Virus record (IMG/VR): IMGVR_UViG_3300046336_000213
Coordinates: 1-42,293 of that record
DNA length: 42,293 nt
Strand: one strand, 5' to 3'
Origin: a virus
Below are positions 5,093-26,261 of the stretch, in pieces; the stretch's first letter is position 1, and each line of letters starts with the position of its first letter. The translations under genes and the position numbers were made by a program. The notes beneath the pieces were generated by a model, which saw only the letters and a program-made list of their open reading frames with translations, had not been told where the DNA came from and searched no databases.

Positions 5093-7096
5093 ATGAAAAA
5101 TATTAAATTTTTCGCAGTCTTATCTGCTCTTTTTCTGTTCACGCTCAATTTGTCCGCACAAACGGACAGCGTGTTCAACCAAATCACGCTCGATGTGAAA
5201 CGCATCGTCGGCACGGACTCTATCACGCCAGAAGAGATGAACCGCATCTTAAAAATGCTCAATTATCGCATTAAAGCAACCGAGACTTTGAGCATCCCGA
5301 CAAGCGCGAAAGGTGTTTCTGGCGGTGTCGCACCACTCAATAGTTCGGGACAAGTGCCTGTGACGCATATTCCTGTGCATTTGCACAGTATGACGCAAAT
5401 TACGGATTATGTTCCATTAGATACAATAAGTAAGTTTGCCACGCAAAACCCAAGCGGTGGCGCGTATGCGAAAAAGGTAGATGGTTCGTATGCTAAACTC
5501 GCGTTTGAAGACGAAACGCACGATAATCAAAGCCTAAGTCTTAATGAAAGAACGCTGAATATTCAAGGTGGAAACTCTGTTATTTTGCCACTCGCTGATA
5601 CGAGCTTTCGACAAATTAATACGAATTTGAAGGGCGGAAACAATGCTTTTTTGTCGCAAAGCGGGACATATAACGTTTCGTTAGGAGATAGCACGTTGAT
5701 GTTTTCTTCTGAGACGACATCTGACAATACAGCTATCGGGCATAAATCATTGATGCAAGCTACTGGCATTGAAAATATTGCATTAGGAAGAGAAAGCCTA
5801 TCTGAAAATGTAATTGGCGAAGGGAATACAGCTATTGGGCATCATACGCTCAAAAAATTCATGGGCAATAATACGACTGCGATAGGTGCGTATGCGTTAA
5901 CAAATCTGACAACAGGGATTGGCAATATGGCTATTGGTTATGCGGCGATGCTTGGGACAACAACTGGCAGAAATAACACAGCGATTGGAAATGGTGCTTT
6001 GTTTCAACTCTCTACGGGAAGGAATAATGTTGGAGTAGGCGGAAGTGCTCTTAACATGATTACGACAGCATACGACAATATCGGTATTGGATTCGGAGCT
6101 ACTCGTTTTTCAAACGGCAACGGCAATATCGGTATTGGAACTTATAGCACATCTGGGACAACAACTGGCACAAGCAATGTTGGAATTGGCGGATATGCTC
6201 TATCAAGCAATCAGGTTGGTAGCAATAATACAGCAATTGGGATATCGGCTGGAAATAACATTACGGGCAATAATAACACAGCAATTGGCTACAACACACA
6301 AGTTCCAGACCCTACTGCGAACAATCAGTTAGTTTTAGGCACTCGTTTTATCGGGTATGCGGATGGTCACAATGAGTTACCAAATCGTACTAAATTAGAC
6401 ACTTTACAAATTTCCCAAAATGCCGCAATAGGCAAAGTCCTTACATCAGACGCTTCTGGCAATGCGCTTTGGCAAACACCCGCATCTGGTGGTGACCCTA
6501 ATTTCAGCACAGTCGGCACAACAAACGTAAAAAGCGGTTTAGATGCGCTTTACAACAATACAACAGGTGTCAGCAATACTGCAACGGGTGTAGCGTCATT
6601 AAACCAAAATACAACAGGCTACTGGAACTCTGGCGTGGGTTTTAAATCATTGAATAAAAACACAACAGGGTATCAAAACAGCGCAGTAGGTTCACAAGCA
6701 CTGTCTTCCAATACCATTGGATATAACAACATTGCGATGGGCGTAAATTCTCTATTGTACAACACAACAGGAAACAATAATGTATCCTTCGGTGTTGCGG
6801 CACTTGGCACAGTGACCAATGGCAGCGAAAATGTTGCAATGGGGTCTTTTGCGGGCAACAACCTTGTGAGTGGTAGCAATAACGTACTCATTGGTTTCAA
6901 TGCGAACCTTCCTTCTACAACAGGCAGCAACCAATTGTCGATAATGAATAAAATCTATATTGATGGAAACGGCAACTTCGTTTTTAAAAATGTAAAATCT
7001 TATGCCTCCGATGCGGCGGCTGATGCTGACACAACCCTACCAAGTCAAGCATTTTACAAAATCACGGGTAGTCGCGTTTTGTATCAAAAGCCTTAA
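5093..7096 (+). CDS. Fibre-like protein with Sec signal and NTAIG beta-roll repeats
   Basis: 667 residues. Residues 1-23 are a clear Sec signal peptide (MKNIKFF, hydrophobic core, SAQ cleavage site). Residues 72-95 contain GVAPLNSSGQVPVTHIP, the motif seen near the shaft of many phage tail fibres. From about 205 to 640 there are two blocks of 15-25-residue repeats of the type N-[TI]-[AG]-[IV]-G (NTAIGHKSL, NMAIGYAAM, NVGVGGSAL), like the YadA-type head beta-roll. The end reads DADTTLPSQAFYKITGSR. A tail-fibre architecture with an export signal is unusual: it may be a virion fibre with a host-derived N-terminus or a surface adhesin carried for the lysogen. A perfect 56-bp hairpin follows. Confidence 0.75.
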   Translation: MKNIKFFAVLSALFLFTLNLSAQTDSVFNQITLDVKRIVGTDSITPEEMNRILKMLNYRIKATETLSIPTSAKGVSGGVAPLNSSGQVPVTHIPVHLHSMTQITDYVPLDTISKFATQNPSGGAYAKKVDGSYAKLAFEDETHDNQSLSLNERTLNIQGGNSVILPLADTSFRQINTNLKGGNNAFLSQSGTYNVSLGDSTLMFSSETTSDNTAIGHKSLMQATGIENIALGRESLSENVIGEGNTAIGHHTLKKFMGNNTTAIGAYALTNLTTGIGNMAIGYAAMLGTTTGRNNTAIGNGALFQLSTGRNNVGVGGSALNMITTAYDNIGIGFGATRFSNGNGNIGIGTYSTSGTTTGTSNVGIGGYALSSNQVGSNNTAIGISAGNNITGNNNTAIGYNTQVPDPTANNQLVLGTRFIGYADGHNELPNRTKLDTLQISQNAAIGKVLTSDASGNALWQTPASGGDPNFSTVGTTNVKSGLDALYNNTTGVSNTATGVASLNQNTTGYWNSGVGFKSLNKNTTGYQNSAVGSQALSSNTIGYNNIAMGVNSLLYNTTGNNNVSFGVAALGTVTNGSENVAMGSFAGNNLVSGSNNVLIGFNANLPSTTGSNQLSIMNKIYIDGNGNFVFKNVKSYASDAAADADTTLPSQAFYKITGSRVLYQKP

Positions 7097-7107
7097 TTAA
7101 CTTACCC

Positions 7108-7226
7108 ACGTTCGGGAAAAGTGCCCCCGACCCCAGAGGGGAGTATCACGACTACCGAGACATCGGTCAAATGTCTCGGTAGTCGTGATACTCCCCTCTG
7201 GGGTCGGGGGCACTTTTCCCGAACGT
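7108..7226. repeat. Giant hairpin 1: perfect 56-bp inverted repeat, 7-base loop
   Basis: Positions 7108-7163 are perfectly complementary to 7171-7226. The core reads CCCCCGACCCCAGAGGGG then GTATCACGACTACCGAGACAT before the loop CGGTCAA. The perfection of the stem implies recent origin, gene conversion or selection on a structure. Related hairpins are at 8090 and 8227, bracketing the two small secreted-protein genes. Confidence 0.95.
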
Positions 7227-7245: not shown

Positions 7246-7758
7246 ATGAAATACCTTTTCCTATTTACTTTTTTGGCAGTTTTCGCAAGCTGCCACGTTC
7301 AAGACACTGCACAAGTTGTCTTAGATTTGCCTAAACTCGACATTTCGACCCCCTCAGTACCAAGCGGCACTTATACCCTCACAAAGGAAGTAAGCGTCAG
7401 CGCAATGGACAGCATCGTTAAAAACTTATCGGGCAAAACGCTGAATGAAGGCGTGGACATCGCCCTCACAGGTGTGACAATCAGCGTATTAACGCCAGAA
7501 AGTCTTACATTTTCGGGCTTTACGTATGCCACATTGTCCGTCAGTTCGGGAACGCAGATTGTGACCGTATTCAGTAACCCCCTCAGTATTTCGGGTAGAA
7601 ATTACGCAGTAACGGGCTTAAACAGCAACATAACCGCGTTGATTCAACACGCCAGACAAACAACAGGCATGTTGACGTATAATTTCACGGTCACAACCAA
7701 CGCAACAACACCCGCCGCATCATGGAGAATTCAACCTACCGCAAGTTTCTCATTATAG
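7246..7758 (+). CDS. Secreted lipoprotein, unknown
   Basis: 170 residues. MKYLFLFTFLAVFASC is a lipoprotein signal peptide with the lipobox cysteine at C16, so the mature protein should be anchored in the outer or inner membrane. The rest is Ser/Thr/Val-rich with alternating strands (TYTLTKEVSVSAMDSIVKN, TLSVSSGTQIVTVFSN), suggesting a single beta-sandwich. TPSV at about 36-39 is encoded by the dispersed 10-mer, which also occurs at 7579. It lies between giant hairpins 1 and 2 and its 3-prime end overlaps the next gene by 37 bases. Plausible roles are lysogenic surface modification or superinfection exclusion (inference from location and export signal). Confidence 0.65.
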   Translation: MKYLFLFTFLAVFASCHVQDTAQVVLDLPKLDISTPSVPSGTYTLTKEVSVSAMDSIVKNLSGKTLNEGVDIALTGVTISVLTPESLTFSGFTYATLSVSSGTQIVTVFSNPLSISGRNYAVTGLNSNITALIQHARQTTGMLTYNFTVTTNATTPAASWRIQPTASFSL

Positions 7759-8084
7759 CTTGCAGCTTGCAGATTATCGCTTGTAGCCTATCGGCACAAA
7801 GCTTTGCGGGTGATTTTGCCTGTGATTTTGTGGCAAAATGTGGCAATGCCCCCCCTCAGTATCAGCCGCCTATTGCGTCAAAAAAGTGCGTATTTTCGGT
7901 TTTTCCAAACCCAACATCCGACATTTTGAGCATAGAGCCGACCCCTCAGTATTGCGCCCTTTTTGATGTATCAGGTCGGCGCATCCGAACAGGGTTTGAT
8001 GTTTCGGACCTTGCACAAGGCGTGTATTTCCTGCACATTCGAGACGGCGATTGCCGCACCATTCGCAAAGTCGTAAAACTGTAA
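7722..8084 (+). CDS. Sorting-domain-only secreted protein (T9SS type A C-terminal domain)
   Basis: 120 residues. Residues about 8-26 form a Sec signal (LIIACSLQIIACSLSAQ). Residues 58-120 match the T9SS type A C-terminal sorting domain (Por secretion tail): FPNPTSDILSIE at 61-72, ALFDVSGRRI at 79-88, DLAQGVYFLHI at 96-106 and the terminal basic KVVKL. Only about 30 residues, with several Cys and a PPQY encoded by the dispersed 10-mer, lie between signal and sorting domain, so there is no recognisable cargo. In Bacteroidota this domain directs export through the T9SS and is removed by PorU during surface attachment. A phage-encoded, nearly cargo-less version could be a displayed peptide or a competitor for the T9SS. 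A copy of the 10-mer also encodes TPQY inside the sorting domain. The start at 7722 overlaps the lipoprotein gene. Confidence 0.75.
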   Translation: MENSTYRKFLIIACSLQIIACSLSAQSFAGDFACDFVAKCGNAPPQYQPPIASKKCVFSVFPNPTSDILSIEPTPQYCALFDVSGRRIRTGFDVSDLAQGVYFLHIRDGDCRTIRKVVKL

Positions 8085-8089
8085 AAAGT

Positions 8090-8178
8090 GCCCCCGACCC
8101 CATAGGGGCGTATCACGACTACCGAGACATCCGCCAAATGTCTCGGTAGTCGTGATACGCCCCTATGGGGTCGGGGGC
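8090..8178. repeat. Giant hairpin 2: perfect 41-bp inverted repeat, 7-base loop
   Basis: 8090-8130 is perfectly complementary to 8138-8178. It shares with hairpin 1 the CCCCCGACCCC tip and the inner TATCACGACTACCGAGACAT, but differs by compensated changes in the middle (ATAGGGGCG instead of AGAGGGGAG). Paired changes in both arms indicate that the structure itself is maintained or copied. Begins five bases after the sorting-domain gene. Confidence 0.95.
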
Positions 8179-8226
8179 TTTGTCCTTTCCTACCCCTCAG
8201 TAACCTTGCACATTTGGGCAAAAATA

Positions 8227-8309
8227 CCCCCGACCCCAAAGGGGAGTATCACGACTGCTAATCCGTCAAATGTCTCGGTAGTCGTGATACTCCCCTCTGG
8301 GGTCGGGGG
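8227..8309. repeat. Giant hairpin 3: imperfect member of the same family
   Basis: CCCCCGACCCC...GTATCACGACT (8227-8256) pairs with 8280-8309 with one mismatch; the inner part of the left arm has decayed (GCTAAT for ACCGAGACAT) while the right arm keeps the family sequence. It sits 16 bases upstream of the next gene. An isolated CCCCTTCGGGGTCGGGGGG at about 17532-17550 resembles the tip. Confidence 0.9.
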
Positions 8310-8325
8310 AATCACTTAATAAGTT

Positions 8326-8922
8326 ATGTCCAAAATCACCGACGCCATAGATGCCCAAAGCATCGCCTTCGCCCAAACCTTTATCGAGCAGAGAAAGGCA
8401 GCTTTGACGCGCAAAAAAGCAACGACAACGGGTGAATTATCCGATAGCTTAGATTTTGAAATGACAAAACAGGCTGGTGAAGAAGCCGCATCACTTTTAC
8501 TTATGTTTTCCGACCATGGGCGTTTTTTGGATATGAAGCCACAAAGTTTTCACTATGAGCATGACCAATGGGGCAGAAATGCCATTGAACGACTACAAAA
8601 CTGGATAGAACGCAAAGGCGTCAGCAAGTTTATGGAAGGTTGGCTCAAAAAACGCGGCTTGATAAAAACCGCTCAGAGTTATCAAAAAGTATTAAATTCC
8701 ATTGCTTGGGGTATCGCATTAAGCCGAACGAAAGGGGAAATGCGTAGCAAAAAATGGTGGAATAAATCAAAGACCGCAGGAACGGCAAACCTACAAAACA
8801 ACGTAGTAGCCGCATTGTACGAGCCTGTTATTGAAACCATCGTCGAGGAACTTACCGATTTACAAAAGTTCAACGCCTATCAAAATACAAGACGGTCTTA
8901 CAGCTTAAAAAATGGTCGTTAA
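8326..8922 (+). CDS. Structural-operon protein upstream of tape measure
   Basis: 198 residues, soluble, helical. It begins with SKITDAIDAQSIAFAQTFIEQRKAAL and has a basic C-terminal end (QNTRRSYSLKNGR). It contains FMEGWLKKRGLIKTAQSYQKVLNSIAWGIALS, a pattern I associate with minor tail or tail-assembly proteins that precede the tape measure in Bacteroidota phages, but I cannot name a family. Nineteen bases separate it from the tape-measure gene, so they are likely co-transcribed and co-functional. Confidence 0.6.
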   Translation: MSKITDAIDAQSIAFAQTFIEQRKAALTRKKATTTGELSDSLDFEMTKQAGEEAASLLLMFSDHGRFLDMKPQSFHYEHDQWGRNAIERLQNWIERKGVSKFMEGWLKKRGLIKTAQSYQKVLNSIAWGIALSRTKGEMRSKKWWNKSKTAGTANLQNNVVAALYEPVIETIVEELTDLQKFNAYQNTRRSYSLKNGR

Positions 8923-8941: not shown

Positions 8942-11900
8942 ATGCCACGTACCGATAATGTCCAGATTCGGATTGACTTCATCACCGACGAATCCAAGCA
9001 GTTTGCCAACGTCATCAAAGACACGGAGAAGTTTCGCGGTGAGCTAAAAAAAGCGCAAAAGGAAGTAGAAACCCTCACCAAAGAGCAGGATAGACTTGCA
9101 GCACAAGGTAAAGACACGACTGCTGTTTCCTTAAAACTCGCCGAAGCTGAACGCAAAGTCGCGCAAAACCTACAAAATATCGCCGAGTCAAGCCGCGATA
9201 TTGCGAAGATAGATTTGTCAAAACTGATGCCGTCACAGCTTGTCACGCGAGCGACGCAACTCAAGCAAGCTCTTCAATTTATCCCTGCCGCGCATCCAGA
9301 ACGCAAGCAAATGGAAGCCGACTTGAAGCGCATCAATGACCAACTCGCCGAAATGAACGGCAAAACCAAAGGCGTGTCAAAAGAAATGGCAGGACTGAGG
9401 GGTGCAACGGGTGGGCTATCAGGCATTTTTCAAAGCATTATCGGCAATTTTTTAGGTGGTGGCATTTTGGGCATTGTTCAAAGTGTTATTGGTGGTATCT
9501 GGAGTTTGGGCAAAACGGCACTTCAAGCGAGTGCAGACATGGAAGGCTTGAAAGTTGCCGTCGAGGTTTTTCTCGGCTCTGGCGCAGCCGCGACTAAGTT
9601 CCTGAAAGACATTCAAAAATTTGCAGCCGAAACCCCATTTGAGTTTCCCGAACTCGCCGAAGCAGGAAAAAAGTTATTGGCGTTTGGTTATTCGGGCGAT
9701 GAGGCAATGAAATTATTAAAAAAATTGGGTGATGTGGCTTCTGCTACTCAAGTCCCCATCGGCGAGTTGGCAGCCATCATCGGCAAAGCCAAATTAGGAC
9801 AAAAAATACAAGGCGAAGAACTCAATCAATTGGCTGATAGAGGCATCAATGTGTTCCCACAATTGGCTAAGGTTTTGAAAACAACCGAAGACCAGATTAA
9901 AAAACTCGGCTCGGAGGGTAAAATATCTTATGCCGATTTGGAACAAGCAATCACGATGGCGACCGAAAAAGGCGGTCAGTTCAACGGCATGATGGCGAAG
10001 CAAAGCAAAACCTTCTCTGGCTTAATGTCCACCATGCAGGACAATTTTAACCAATTTGTCCAAACGATTTTTGGCGGTATTGGTGAAGGCTTAAAGCCCG
10101 CTATTGCGGGAATTGCGGATTTTTTCGGGCAATTAACGGATTTGTTTCGGGACGGTAAAAAGCCCGTTGGCGAATTTGCGGAGGTCATTCAATACGCAGC
10201 CACTATTTTCAAAATTTTAGGCAATGTCTTTGGCATCGTTTGGGAAGTGGGAAAATTATTTTTAGGCTACATTTTGGAGCAGATTAAAGCCATCGCATGG
10301 CTTGGAAATCGTGTGGGCGACCTCATAGGTTGGTTTGTTGGTTTGGCAGAGGAAATGAAGAAAATACCCGCTTTGTCCCTTCTTTTCAAAGGCTTATTGG
10401 ACACAATTGGGCTTGTAAGTGACCTACTTTCAAACGCTTCTGCCACCTTCGCAGGTTTTAGAGCCGCCGCACAGCAAGCCATTACCAATGTGCAAAACTA
10501 CATGTTGGCGTTAGCCATTGATGCCGAAATAATGGGCGCAAAACTACTATCAGCCCTTAGTTTAGGTAATAAAGATAGTATTTCGGAGACAATTAAAGCA
10601 TTAGAAGGCAAAAAAGCCGCTATGTTCAATGCAGGGCGAACCGTAGAACAGGCTTATACTGAGGGGCGTAATACTTGGATAAAAGCCCAAAACCAAGTAG
10701 AAAAAGAGGGCGAAGCCAAGAAGCAAGCCGCCAAAGAAGAGAAGAAAGGTATAGATGAAAAAGCAGCCGCCAAAGCTGAAAAAGAACGGCTTGACCGCAT
10801 CAAAGCTGCTTTAGAAATGGAGTTAGAATTGAAGGAGATTGCGTATAGAAAAGAAGCACTTGTCAACGAAATCGCCTTCCTGAATAAAGAGAAAAACGAA
10901 TCGGCTTTCAATAAAAAGTTATTAGAATTAGAACGAGACAAATACGATGCACAAATCAAGATTTTTGATACCTATCAAGCCAGTTTTTCAGCGAAAAGCG
11001 ATGAATATAGAAATATTGAACTTAAAAAGTTAGAAGCCCAAAAGAAACTTTTAGAGGTAAATATCCAACTAAAGCCGCGACATGTGGAAGAAGTAGCCAC
11101 TCTATCAATAAAGCCACTGACTACGAAGGAAGTCAAATCTGATGACTTAACCAAAGATGCCACACTCACAAATATTCAAACCAATGCTGATATTGAAAAA
11201 CAATTAGTAAAACAAAAATTTGCTGATTTATTAAGCCTTGAGTTAAATTTCGAGTTGAAGCGTTTAGAAATTCAGAAAAAAGCATTTGCTGACCAACGGA
11301 TTGAAATAGAACGATTATACCACGATAAAATCATAACAGCAAATGAATATGCTGAAAAAATGATTGCATTAGGTGAAAAAGAGATAAAAAACGACGAGAA
11401 AATACAAAAAAGTAAAGAACAAATTAGCCAAGTAGAAAACGATAGAAATAAAATGATTCAAGGCTTTAGAGCGGAAGCCATTGACATTGCTGTTGATTTG
11501 ATGCAGTCTAATTTATCTAAGGAAAAACAAGCCTACAAGGAAAAATCGGACAATGTTCAGACTAAAATGGACCTGCTCAAGAAAGCAGGAAAAGAAGAAT
11601 CAGCCGAATATAAAAAACTGCAACAAGAAAAAGAAGCCATTGATAAAGATGAAATTGCCGCAAGAAAAAAGGCAGGCGCAACTATAAAAGCCTTTCAAAT
11701 TGCCCAAATTGTCATGGATGGCATCGCCGAAGTTCAAGGCATTTGGAAAACGGCGAATCTAAATGCACTCAATATTTTATTTCCTGGAGCAGGTGAAATA
11801 ATTGCAGGCGTAAAAACAGCTATCGCTATTGGTAGAAGTACATCTGCTATCAGTCGCGTGAAAGCCCAACAATTTGAGGCTGGTGGTGTTGCCGCTTTAA

Positions 11901-12310
11901 AATCGGGAATATTTGGAGGGAAACCACATAGTACAGGCGGTACAAAAGGCTTCTTTTCGGACGGAACAGCCGTAGAAGTCGAAAAAGACGAAGCATTTGT
12001 GGTCGTAAACAAGAAAAACACACCGCTACTGGGCGCACTTAGTTCTATCAATGCCGCAGGAGGAAACGGCAAATCCTTCTTTGGCGAACAAGGTTTTGCC
12101 ATGAATATCAACACAACACCCCGCTTTTCAACGGGTGTGATCCCCCCCCCCTATAACAACCAGGGCGAAGGGAAAATTATCGAGAAAATGGAAGCCTACA
12201 TGCAAAAAGTGGACAGTTGGGCAACAAGTTTGGAAGTCAGTTTACCGATGAATAAGTTGGAAAGAAAACAGAAAGAAATCACGCTCGACCGCAATGAAGC
12301 GAGCTATTGA
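8942..12310 (+). CDS. Tail tape-measure protein
   Basis: 1122 residues. Residues 1-140 are a charged coiled coil; 150-190 is a Gly/Ile-rich hydrophobic segment; about 195-330 is the conserved tape-measure N-terminal domain (FAAETPFEFPELAEAGKKLL, GELAAIIGKAKLGQKIQGEE, LNQLADRGINVFPQLA), the TIGR02675 type. Further hydrophobic segments lie at about 430-480, then long Lys/Glu-rich coiled coils from 560 to 930 and a Gly-rich C-terminal end. At about 0.15 nm per residue the length implies a tail near 165 nm, which with the absence of a sheath gene indicates a siphovirus. One copy of the dispersed 10-mer (10657) is read as TEG. Confidence 0.93.
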   Translation: MPRTDNVQIRIDFITDESKQFANVIKDTEKFRGELKKAQKEVETLTKEQDRLAAQGKDTTAVSLKLAEAERKVAQNLQNIAESSRDIAKIDLSKLMPSQLVTRATQLKQALQFIPAAHPERKQMEADLKRINDQLAEMNGKTKGVSKEMAGLRGATGGLSGIFQSIIGNFLGGGILGIVQSVIGGIWSLGKTALQASADMEGLKVAVEVFLGSGAAATKFLKDIQKFAAETPFEFPELAEAGKKLLAFGYSGDEAMKLLKKLGDVASATQVPIGELAAIIGKAKLGQKIQGEELNQLADRGINVFPQLAKVLKTTEDQIKKLGSEGKISYADLEQAITMATEKGGQFNGMMAKQSKTFSGLMSTMQDNFNQFVQTIFGGIGEGLKPAIAGIADFFGQLTDLFRDGKKPVGEFAEVIQYAATIFKILGNVFGIVWEVGKLFLGYILEQIKAIAWLGNRVGDLIGWFVGLAEEMKKIPALSLLFKGLLDTIGLVSDLLSNASATFAGFRAAAQQAITNVQNYMLALAIDAEIMGAKLLSALSLGNKDSISETIKALEGKKAAMFNAGRTVEQAYTEGRNTWIKAQNQVEKEGEAKKQAAKEEKKGIDEKAAAKAEKERLDRIKAALEMELELKEIAYRKEALVNEIAFLNKEKNESAFNKKLLELERDKYDAQIKIFDTYQASFSAKSDEYRNIELKKLEAQKKLLEVNIQLKPRHVEEVATLSIKPLTTKEVKSDDLTKDATLTNIQTNADIEKQLVKQKFADLLSLELNFELKRLEIQKKAFADQRIEIERLYHDKIITANEYAEKMIALGEKEIKNDEKIQKSKEQISQVENDRNKMIQGFRAEAIDIAVDLMQSNLSKEKQAYKEKSDNVQTKMDLLKKAGKEESAEYKKLQQEKEAIDKDEIAARKKAGATIKAFQIAQIVMDGIAEVQGIWKTANLNALNILFPGAGEIIAGVKTAIAIGRSTSAISRVKAQQFEAGGVAALKSGIFGGKPHSTGGTKGFFSDGTAVEVEKDEAFVVVNKKNTPLLGALSSINAAGGNGKSFFGEQGFAMNINTTPRFSTGVIPPPYNNQGEGKIIEKMEAYMQKVDSWATSLEVSLPMNKLERKQKEITLDRNEASY

Positions 12311-12350: not shown

Positions 12351-12686
12351 ATGAGAGGCGTTTTTTTGTGTGACGAAATGCTTCGCATCATCGAAATGCG
12401 CGACCGCACCACCACGTTTTTCTACGTTGACCCGCCGTACTTCAATTCAAATATGGGGCATTATTCGGGCTACACTGAAAACGATTTTGAGAATCTGTTG
12501 AAAGCATTGGCAAGTGTGAAAGGCAAGTTTCTCCTAAGCTCGTACCCCTCACCCATTTTGGACAAATACATCGCCGAGAACAATTGGCAGATGAAGGCAG
12601 TCCCGATGCCCGTAATGGCGAGCAAAAACCGAAAGGAAAAAATTGAAGTGCTTACCGCCAACTTCGATATTACCTTGGGCGAATAG
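12351..12686 (+). pseudogene. Truncated DNA adenine methylase (D12 class), C-terminal half
   Basis: 111 residues that begin shortly before the catalytic motif DPPY (FFYVDPPYFNSN) and continue as in the C-terminal half of Dam-type N6-adenine methylases (YTENDFENLLKALASVKGKFLLSSY). The complete enzymes are about 250-290 residues and have an N-terminal FxGxG SAM-binding motif and a target-recognition domain, both missing here. The 40 bases before the ORF do not encode them, and the tape-measure gene ends just upstream. It is probably a non-functional remnant of a methylase gene lost when tail and lysogeny modules were joined. Confidence 0.75.
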
Positions 12687-14152: not shown

Positions 14153-14680
14153 TCACCATTTATCGTCTTTACTTGGGCTATTTTTATTCATAGCTTCAAT
14201 AAGTAAGTTTTCTAAGCGGTGGAGGTCTTCGCCTAATGCCTTTCTTAGCGTTTTATTCATTTTTGGGTACTTCCAATAGTCTTCTGCACCCCACTCAAAC
14301 TTTCCTTTTATGGTTACTTGGTTGAATGTATAGCGATAACGTCCATCTTTTATTTCAATTTTTATAGTGATGTTCATTGGTAGTTCAGCATTAGCCATGA
14401 CATTCCAAAATGTGAAGGTTGAAATGCCTTTGCCGATAATTACACCATTTTCAGCATCATCTAACTGAATGACATCTTTACTTGATTTGAAGCCGTTTAC
14501 AAAAAAAAGTTTGGCACGTTGGTATAACTCTTTTTTTGAAAGACTATCCATTTTCACAACTTCCTGAATACCTACTTTACCTTCCAATACAGGCATACTA
14601 AGAGAATCTTGTGTTATTTTTTGCGCTTGTGCGCTAAAACTTGCGGCAACCATTACTACTATTAAAATTATTTTTTTCAT
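14153..14680 (-). CDS. Secreted DUF4468-type protein
   Basis: 175 residues with a Sec signal (MKKIILIVVMVAASFSAQAQ). The mature part fits DUF4468, a Bacteroidota family with a TBP-like fold: MPVLEGKVGIQEVVKMDSLSK, then KELYQRAKLFFVNGFKSSKD and ENGVIIGKG. Its function is unknown. It lies between integrase and the disrupted lipoprotein gene, all transcribed leftwards, a typical place for lysogenic-conversion genes carried by a prophage. Not needed for virion formation by any evidence here. Confidence 0.75.
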   Translation of the reverse strand: MKKIILIVVMVAASFSAQAQKITQDSLSMPVLEGKVGIQEVVKMDSLSKKELYQRAKLFFVNGFKSSKDVIQLDDAENGVIIGKGISTFTFWNVMANAELPMNITIKIEIKDGRYRYTFNQVTIKGKFEWGAEDYWKYPKMNKTLRKALGEDLHRLENLLIEAMNKNSPSKDDKW

Positions 14681-14921: not shown

Positions 14922-15153
14922 TTAAATCACGTATTTTTGTCTAAAATTCCCGAAGGGAATGTATGTTTATAGGAATATTATGGATTGATTTTCCTTAATC
15001 CCGAAGGGATTATATGTAATTGTGGACATTTTGACATATAATCCCTTCGGGATTTGAGAAAAATATCCGATTTCGTCCTATAAACATACATTCCCTTCGG
15101 GAATTTTAATCGAAACTGTATTGTTGTAAAAAAACTGGAACATCGAGTATATA
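14898..15153. mobile_element. 256-bp MITE-like nested palindrome
   Basis: Three nested perfect inverted repeats: outer 26 bp (14898-14923 with 15128-15153), middle 33 bp (14942-14974 with 15076-15108), inner 21 bp (14997-15017 with 15034-15054). The middle and inner arms carry TTCCCGAAGGGAA and TCCCGAAGGGAT, themselves small hairpins with UUCG-type loops. The outer repeats begin TATATACTCGATG. There is no room for a transposase, so it would be non-autonomous. It interrupts a lipoprotein gene, and its removal restores the frame. Target duplication is ambiguous because the ends are TATA-rich. Confidence 0.75.
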
Positions 15154-15657
15154 AGAAAAGAAACCATTAGTAAATTCAGACTTCCGTTTGCTACAAAGGC
15201 GTTTCAAAGCATCTATATCAAAACTACTTTTGGACACATATAGCTCCATTGTGTTTATATGCTCACCTATATGCTCTGATTTTGAATTAACTAAATCAAA
15301 AGCATCTATCTGCTCTTTTTGAATTATTGAGTTAGATTCACTTGATTGCAGAGGCGAGTAGCTACCTATTTCCTTCTTTATTGCTATTTCTGTTGGTAAT
15401 ATTTTCTTATTAGTTAGATTTAGAAAGGCATTTGCATAACGCTCTGTGTAATTGTCGCTACTATCTATGACTACTTTAGAGAACCTTTCAATATACACAA
15501 AAGATGAGTCTGTAGAAAATACTTTATAAGCGATACCCTCTCCGACACCTTTTGAAAAAGTATTTTTAGCAATTTCTTTCACATGGCTTAGTTTCGTTGG
15601 TTTAGGCTCATTTTGGCAACTAACTAAAAATAAGAACACAAATAGTAATTCTTTCAT
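15106..15657 (-). CDS. Lipoprotein gene, 3-prime truncated by the nested palindrome
   Basis: 183 residues as it stands. MKELLFVFLFLVSC is a lipoprotein signal with the lipobox Cys at 14. The body is Ser/Lys-rich (SHVKEIAKNTFSKGVGEG, YVSKSSFDIDALKRL) with no family recognised. The last residues (SYILDVPVFLQQYSFD) are encoded by the outer inverted repeat of the inserted element, so the native protein probably continued with the frame at 14706-14897. Whether the shortened protein is stable is unknown. As an exported protein in the lysogeny region it may act in surface conversion. Confidence 0.6.
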   Translation of the reverse strand: MKELLFVFLFLVSCQNEPKPTKLSHVKEIAKNTFSKGVGEGIAYKVFSTDSSFVYIERFSKVVIDSSDNYTERYANAFLNLTNKKILPTEIAIKKEIGSYSPLQSSESNSIIQKEQIDAFDLVNSKSEHIGEHINTMELYVSKSSFDIDALKRLCSKRKSEFTNGFFSYILDVPVFLQQYSFD

Positions 15658-17215: not shown

Positions 17216-17287
17216 AAAGAGGTAGCTCAAGGTTAGAGCATCGAGGTGTTAACTCGAAGGTTGAAGGTTCGAGACCTTCCCTCTTTA
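17216..17287 (+). tRNA. tRNA-Asn (anticodon GUU)
   Basis: A full cloverleaf can be drawn: acceptor AAAGAGG/CCTCTTT, D stem GCTC/GAGC with loop AAGGTTA, anticodon stem TCGAG/CTCGA with loop GTGTTAA (anticodon GUU, A37), variable AGGTT, T stem GAAGG/CCTTC with loop TTCGAGA. All stems pair. The discriminator base is A, where most tRNA-Asn have G, and CCA is not encoded. It may supplement host tRNA or be an attachment-site relic. Confidence 0.85.
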
Positions 17288-17347
17288 CAGCAAGATAATG
17301 GTTAGCCGACTTACGATAGTCGGCGAAATGAGTTTTCTGGGTAATAC

Positions 17348-25931: not shown

Positions 25932-26261
25932 ATGAACCTTAAAAAATATAACTACTTAATAATCAATATTTTAGTAGGGTTCATTTAGGGTTCATTTAGG
26001 GTTCAAACGGGGTTCATTTAGGGTTCATACAGGGTTCACTTTTTAACGTATTTACCTCACAAATATTTTTTTATTCAATAAGTACGTGAACCCTCGTGAA
26101 CCCTAATTTTACTTTTTCTAACTCATTGATTTATAATAAGTTAGAACAAAACAAAAAATTCACGGTGAACCCTAAATGAACCCTAAATGAACCCTAAAAA
26201 AACGCTATAACTAATTGATTGTCAATTAGTTAGTTAAAAGTAGGGTTCAAAATCAAGGTTC
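25932..26261. other. Iteron array: candidate replication origin
   Basis: GGGTTCA occurs six times in direct orientation at exactly 11-bp spacing (25976, 25987, 25998, 26009, 26020, 26031). Its complement TGAACCC follows at 26086, 26096, 26165, 26176 and 26187, the last three again at 11 bp, and one more forward copy is at 26242; degenerate copies are at 25932 and 26255. Between the sets are AT-rich segments (26044-26082, 26103-26160) suitable for strand opening, and a palindrome CTAATTGA-TTG-TCAATTAG is at 26210-26228. One-turn spacing puts bound protein on one DNA face. The region lies next to the DUF3987 gene and holds no ORF. Confidence 0.8.

What the first reader, a model, noticed from the sequence alone, without database searches (positions are those of the whole stretch)
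7722..8084. Phage-encoded T9SS sorting-domain protein with almost no cargo
The protein is a Sec signal, about 30 residues, and a full T9SS type A sorting domain. Host proteins use this domain to reach the surface through the type IX system. A phage version could put a peptide on the lysogen surface, or saturate PorU/PorV and switch off T9SS-dependent receptors, gliding or predation. I do not know of a described phage factor of this kind.
Basis: partly seen in the sequence, partly recalled or inferred. Interest (0 to 1): 0.87.

Follow-up and report, generated by a model that had tools for sequence, protein, structure and literature searches.

The report
Tiny phage protein with bacterial export tag
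A virus, probably of a Bacteroidota bacterium, carries a 120-residue secreted-looking protein that is almost nothing but the tag such bacteria use to send proteins to the cell surface, which suggests the virus borrows or interferes with that export machine; the tag is real but its effect is untested.

Summary
ORF 7722-8084 (+) encodes 120 aa: a hydrophobic Sec-like N-terminus (about 26 aa), about 33 residues, then a type A T9SS sorting domain to the end (PF18962 35.6 bits, cut-off 27; TIGR04183 34.7, cut-off 23). A profile built only from phage-borne domains scores it 44.7 bits; no shuffle and no other frame of the window scores. It sits among structural genes, just upstream of a 198-aa gene and the tape-measure gene.

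The claim that no such phage factor is described is only partly right. Phage-encoded T9SS cargo is published (Cryophage; a crAss-like cluster), and one narrow motif search found 37 more IMG/VR contigs, besides two ~640-kb phages. What is unusual is the size: its open frame is the shortest of all sorting-domain frames measured here (34 on Persicobacter replicons, all 428 aa or more; 14 on other viral records). One ~635-kb phage has a comparable 117-aa protein.

Best reading: an accessory (moron) gene whose product enters the host T9SS and puts a short Cys-containing peptide on the surface or outside. Decoy, deletion remnant, virion part and PorA-like signalling are not excluded. The host and its T9SS are unidentified; nothing functional was tested.

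The parts
7722..8084 (+). P0001, 120 aa: Sec-like N-terminus, about 33 residues, T9SS type A sorting domain to the C-terminus
7722..7799 (+). Sec-like signal, residues 1-26 (...SLSAQ|SF); two IIAC stretches leave a lipoprotein signal possible
   Evidence: inspection and hydropathy only
7800..7898 (+). residues 27-59, the whole possible cargo; Cys 34, 40 and 57; no family match
7899..8081 (+). T9SS type A sorting domain, residues 60-120; about 9 residues shorter than a generic domain between SGR and DVS
7246..7758 (+). upstream gene, 170 aa, putative lipoprotein (FASC at the start), overlaps P0001's ORF by 37 nt; mostly beta strands in a single-sequence model (pLDDT 73); no family
5093..7096 (+). 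667-aa tail-spike-like protein with a Sec-like start
   Evidence: phrog_4636 'tail spike', E 7e-51
7108..7226 (.). palindrome, perfect 56-nt arms, 7-nt loop, upstream of the two-gene unit
8084..8178 (.). second copy, 94% identical over 95 nt in direct orientation, perfect 41-nt arms; begins at P0001's stop codon; -94.5 kcal/mol, z -15
8224..8312 (.). third, less perfect copy of the palindrome (33-nt arms, 94%)
8326..8922 (+). 198-aa gene of unknown function between P0001 and the tape-measure gene
   Evidence: no credible family
8942..12310 (+). tail tape-measure protein, 1122 aa
   Evidence: PF20155, E 2e-24

Best explanation
P0001 is an accessory (moron) protein of a phage of a T9SS-bearing bacterium. 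It is exported by Sec, its sorting domain folds and is taken by the host T9SS, and the domain is then removed by PorU, so that a peptide of about 30 residues with up to three cysteines is left on the cell surface or in the medium. The likely benefit is a changed surface of the infected cell, for example against superinfecting phages. Shown: the sorting domain, its place at the C-terminus, the near-absence of cargo, the phage setting. Inferred: Sec export, a T9SS in the host, cleavage and display, and the benefit.
For: Both ends of a T9SS cargo protein are present. It sits beside two more genes with secretion-signal-like starts, 5093-7096 and 7246-7758. Other phages carry Sec-like sorting-domain proteins; L028 has one directly beside a tape-measure gene, with lipoprotein-like genes nearby. 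A sorting domain is reported to be necessary and sufficient for T9SS export, and PorU usually removes it (PMC11285876).
Against: Host unidentified, so a host T9SS is not shown. No signal-peptide predictor. Short sorting domain. A ~30-residue peptide is a very small cargo: 34 host-type frames are all 428 aa or more. No close relative to test conservation.
Confidence: 0.45

Rival explanations
1. Deletion remnant: a former longer T9SS cargo gene that lost its cargo, leaving signal and sorting domain with no present function.
For: Short domain, weak codon-usage signal compared with other genes of the window (0.044 versus mostly 0.1-0.3, and a shifted frame scores higher), no close relative, outlier in size.
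Against: Intact frame, domain above both curated cut-offs, and a Sec-like start kept in frame with it. A comparable short protein exists in an unrelated phage.
Confidence: 0.2
2. Decoy: the nearly cargo-free sorting domain occupies PorV or the PorU complex and lowers export of host T9SS cargo (adhesins, receptors, gliding proteins), protecting the infected cell from other phages.
For: Almost no cargo. Several sorting domains bind PorV in P. gingivalis (PMC7712824). Phage-exposed F. columnare isolates often carry gld/spr mutations and are resistant (PMC9233685).
Against: No sequence feature favours blocking over normal export; blocking would need high expression, which is unknown. GFP fused to sorting domains is exported (PMC11285876).
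Confidence: 0.17
3. Virion part: the Ig-like domain is used as a structural or adhesive domain of the phage particle rather than as an export tag.
For: Same strand as, and just upstream of, the tape-measure gene; next to a tail-spike-like gene. Sorting domains have an Ig-like fold (PMC11285876).
Against: A Sec-like start is unexpected in a virion protein; the match is to the T9SS profiles and to no PHROG.
Confidence: 0.1
4. PorA-like signalling: the uncleaved domain stays at the surface and acts on T9SS gene regulation.
For: PorA of P. gingivalis is a small sorting-domain protein that affects PorXY-SigP signalling and binds PorV (PMC7712824).
Against: PorA has a FimH-like N-terminal domain, which P0001 has no room for; host regulators unknown.
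Confidence: 0.06

Closest known systems
T9SS type A sorting-domain cargo proteins (PF18962 / TIGR04183)
   Same: Domain at the C-terminus, above both curated cut-offs; Sec-like start.
   Different: About 33 residues of cargo instead of hundreds; shortened domain; encoded by a phage.
Cryophage T9SS-labelled cargo genes (PMC7468147)
   Same: Phage-encoded proteins with type A sorting domains.
   Different: Those are an endoglucanase, a GH39 and a PA14-domain gene; P0001 has no recognisable cargo domain.
T9SS sorting-domain proteins of crAss-like cluster 2 (PMC6949934)
   Same: Phage-encoded, upstream of the head gene section in that report.
   Different: No close sequence relation shown here; one is fused to BACON repeats.
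L014 protein of uncultured phage LR745206 (117 aa)
   Same: Sec-like start, little room for cargo, sorting domain above the TIGR04183 cut-off (24.2 vs 23).
   Different: Below the Pfam cut-off (25.6 vs 27), no PNP motif; a ~635-kb phage.
PorA (PGN_0123) of P. gingivalis (PMC7712824)
   Same: Small sorting-domain protein whose domain can bind PorV.
   Different: Chromosomal regulator with a structured FimH-like domain.

Membership tests
T9SS type A sorting-domain protein | Profile match above curated cut-off | tested here: met
   PF18962 35.6 vs 27; TIGR04183 34.7 vs 23
T9SS type A sorting-domain protein | Domain at the extreme C-terminus with conserved motifs and a lysine near the end | tested here: met
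   VFPNPTSD, SGR, GVYF and ...RKVVKL at the end
T9SS type A sorting-domain protein | Domain length in the known range (67-88 residues from the PorU site for processed P. gingivalis cargo, PMC11285876) | tested here: inconclusive
   61 residues from VFPNP; the PorU site is unknown
T9SS type A sorting-domain protein | Sec signal peptide | tested here: inconclusive
   Looks like one by eye and hydropathy; no predictor; lipobox-like IIAC stretches
T9SS type A sorting-domain protein | Ig-like beta-sandwich fold | tested here: inconclusive
   Single-sequence model, mean pLDDT 34
T9SS type A sorting-domain protein | Host with a T9SS; export depends on it | not testable with these tools
   Host not identified
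Phage moron / lysogenic conversion gene | Lies within a phage genome but is not a core phage gene | tested here: met
   Among structural genes of a virus record; no PHROG match
Phage moron / lysogenic conversion gene | Variable presence among related phages; expressed from the prophage | not testable with these tools
   The only near relative found, L009, is 4.5 kb and does not reach the locus
PorA-like T9SS regulator | FimH-like N-terminal domain before the sorting domain | tested here: not met
   Only about 33 residues lie between signal and domain

The most novel reading that the evidence does not exclude
Phages of T9SS bacteria encode nearly cargo-free sorting-domain proteins that act on the T9SS itself as decoys, changing the host surface and blocking superinfection: an anti-secretion factor for type IX.
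Probability: 0.13. Interest if true: 0.85.

Novelty: new variant of a known kind. Interest (0 to 1): 0.5.

Why it matters
[quoted passage not shown] The survey here suggests it recurs in viral contigs, in at least one case beside a tape-measure gene, with cargo from over 1000 residues down to almost none. If the nearly cargo-free form is exported, or blocks export, it would be a natural probe of what the T9SS recognises and a route by which phages change the surface of their hosts.

Tried and rejected
L002, the one 'relative' of P0001 in viral contigs, shares GNAPPQYQP, the search pattern itself, within a 943-aa protein of another kind; rejected as ascertainment. The palindrome core matched six viral loci, all chance 16-mers without the palindrome, and no genome contig. 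Tape-measure, lipoprotein and MCP queries found no viral relatives. The structure model of P0001 failed. The fold search with the lipoprotein model gave mixed matches of low TM-score for the leading ones and was not used. A weak defence-library match of the 198-aa neighbour (14 bits) was judged chance. Codon usage did not decide whether P0001 is coding. The two-copy decamer scan gave loci with only two or three copies each.

Full report
Observation. The ORF 7722-8084 (+) is intact and encodes 120 residues. Its last 61 residues match the T9SS type A sorting domain nearly end to end, above the curated cut-offs of Pfam (35.6 vs 27 bits) and NCBIfam (34.7 vs 23); it is the only such match in the window. 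A profile built from 24 distinct phage-borne domains scores P0001 at 44.7 bits (E 1.5e-12); 2000 shuffles, the reversed protein and the other stop-to-stop frames of the window gave no match at E <= 10. The domain is short: compared with a generic domain sequence it lacks about nine residues between the SGR and DVS motifs. The first 26 residues look like a Sec signal ending in SAQ, but this rests on inspection and hydropathy only, and two IIAC stretches leave a lipoprotein signal possible. Between signal and domain lie about 33 residues with three cysteines and no family match.

Setting. The window is a virus record. It carries tape-measure, terminase, holin and integrase genes. P0001 is followed by a 198-aa gene without a credible family and then the tape-measure gene. 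It is preceded by a putative lipoprotein (7246-7758, overlapping by 37 nt) and a tail-spike-like protein with a Sec-like start (5093-7096; phrog_4636). The lipoprotein and P0001 are bracketed by near-identical long palindromes: 7108-7226 (perfect 56-nt arms) and 8084-8178 (perfect 41-nt arms), 94% identical over 95 nt, in direct orientation 967 bp apart; a third, less perfect copy lies at 8224-8312. The second folds at -94.5 kcal/mol, z -15. Recombination between the two direct copies would remove exactly the two genes; this is inference, and the palindromes may equally be terminators.

Is the domain unusual for a phage? No. Cryophage carries three T9SS-labelled proteins (PMC7468147), and a crAss-like cluster has others (PMC6949934). 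A scan of IMG/VR with one narrow motif, [VI][YF]PNP[TV][STV]D[FVI], confirmed 37 contigs, some of them near-identical copies of one gene. Where the frame is complete the proteins start with Sec-like sequences and have 147 to 1196 residues before the domain. That these contigs are viral is IMG/VR's classification; I checked a few neighbours. L028 has a sorting-domain gene directly beside a tape-measure gene, with a virion structural gene and lipoprotein-like genes nearby; L045 has an endolysin gene about 4 kb from its sorting-domain gene; for L021, L046 and L048 the few neighbours tested matched no PHROG with a named function. Two ~640-kb phage records carry 199- and 186-aa examples.

Is the lack of cargo unusual? 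Yes, on the sets measured. On two large Persicobacter replicons 34 domain frames range from 428 to 5637 aa. On ten IMG/VR records 11 frames range from 216 to 1276 aa, and on the two large phages three frames are 147, 202 and 204 aa. P0001's frame, measured in the same way, is 133 aa (stated for the same locus). Persicobacter is one genus, so the host baseline is narrow. The closest in size is the L014 protein of LR745206: 117 aa from its likely start, Sec-like, above the TIGR04183 cut-off (24.2 vs 23) but just under Pfam's (25.6 vs 27) and without the PNP motif. So the form may recur, on one marginal case.

Mechanism. From work on P. gingivalis and F. johnsoniae: a sorting domain is reported to be necessary and sufficient for export, PorU usually removes it, and cargo is released or attached to A-LPS (PMC11285876); several sorting domains, that of PorA included, bind PorV (PMC7712824). 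If the host has a compatible T9SS, P0001 should enter it; the same paper reports incompatibility between species, so this is not certain. The most likely outcome is delivery of a ~30-residue peptide to the surface or medium (0.45). A deletion remnant (0.20) fits the short domain, the weak codon signal and the lack of close relatives. A decoy (0.17) is attractive because phage-resistant F. columnare isolates often carry mutations in T9SS-linked gliding genes (PMC9233685), but nothing in the sequence favours it over delivery. A virion role (0.10) and PorA-like signalling (0.06) are less likely.

Limits. The host is unidentified: both genome-contig scans found nothing. That it is a Bacteroidota-type host is inferred from the sorting domain and from the closest terminase matches in named phages (Polaribacter and Flavobacterium among the best, 24-27% identity). 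The one near relative, L009 (TerL 74% identical), is 4.5 kb and does not span the locus. No selection test was possible. The structure model of P0001 was uninformative.

Verdict. A real, phage-encoded, nearly cargo-free T9SS sorting-domain protein: an unusual variant of a kind already described in phages. Its function is untested.

Noticed in passing
whole window; e.g. 7350, 7579, 7852, 7942, 8193: The decamer CCCCTCAGTA occurs 30 times exactly (expected 0.01) and only 8 more times with one mismatch, on both strands, in genes and between them, with sharp edges (mostly A or C before, often T after). It looks like a recognised DNA motif, as uptake or HIP1-like repeats are. Five copies lie within 853 bp around P0001, two of them inside its ORF.
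   Followed up: partly
L009 (4501 bp), positions 1303, 1777, 2910: The only near relative of this phage found (TerL 74% identical) also carries the decamer three times; one copy (L009 2910) encodes the same DDPSVLE stretch as window 32001, the other two have no counterpart that I saw.
   Followed up: partly
7108-7226, 8084-8178, 8224-8312: Three related long palindromes, two with perfect arms of 56 and 41 nt, around the lipoprotein-P0001 pair; no match to the core in genome contigs and only chance matches in viral contigs.
   Followed up: partly
5093-7096 (+): A tail-spike-like protein that starts with a Sec-like signal (MKNIKFFAVLSALFLFTLNLSAQ), odd for a virion protein; the tail spike of Polaribacter phage Leef_1 does not start so.
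   Followed up: partly
14153-14680 (-) and 15106-15657 (-): Two more genes with secretion-signal-like starts near the integrase: a DUF4468 protein and a putative lipoprotein.
   Followed up: no
12351-12686 (+): A 111-aa ORF that matches only the C-terminal part of Dam-family methyltransferases (TIGR00571 158-260/267), apparently a fragment.
   Followed up: no
17216-17288 (+): tRNA-Asn (GTT); carried by the phage or part of an attachment site.
   Followed up: no
25969-26207: Iterated AGGGTTCAT units in both orientations around a 120-170 bp centre, possibly a replication or regulatory site.
   Followed up: no
1150-1234: Imperfect palindrome made of AAGTGATAAGTG / AAGTGAAAAGTG units; these 12-mers recur 12 and 9 times in the window.
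   Followed up: no
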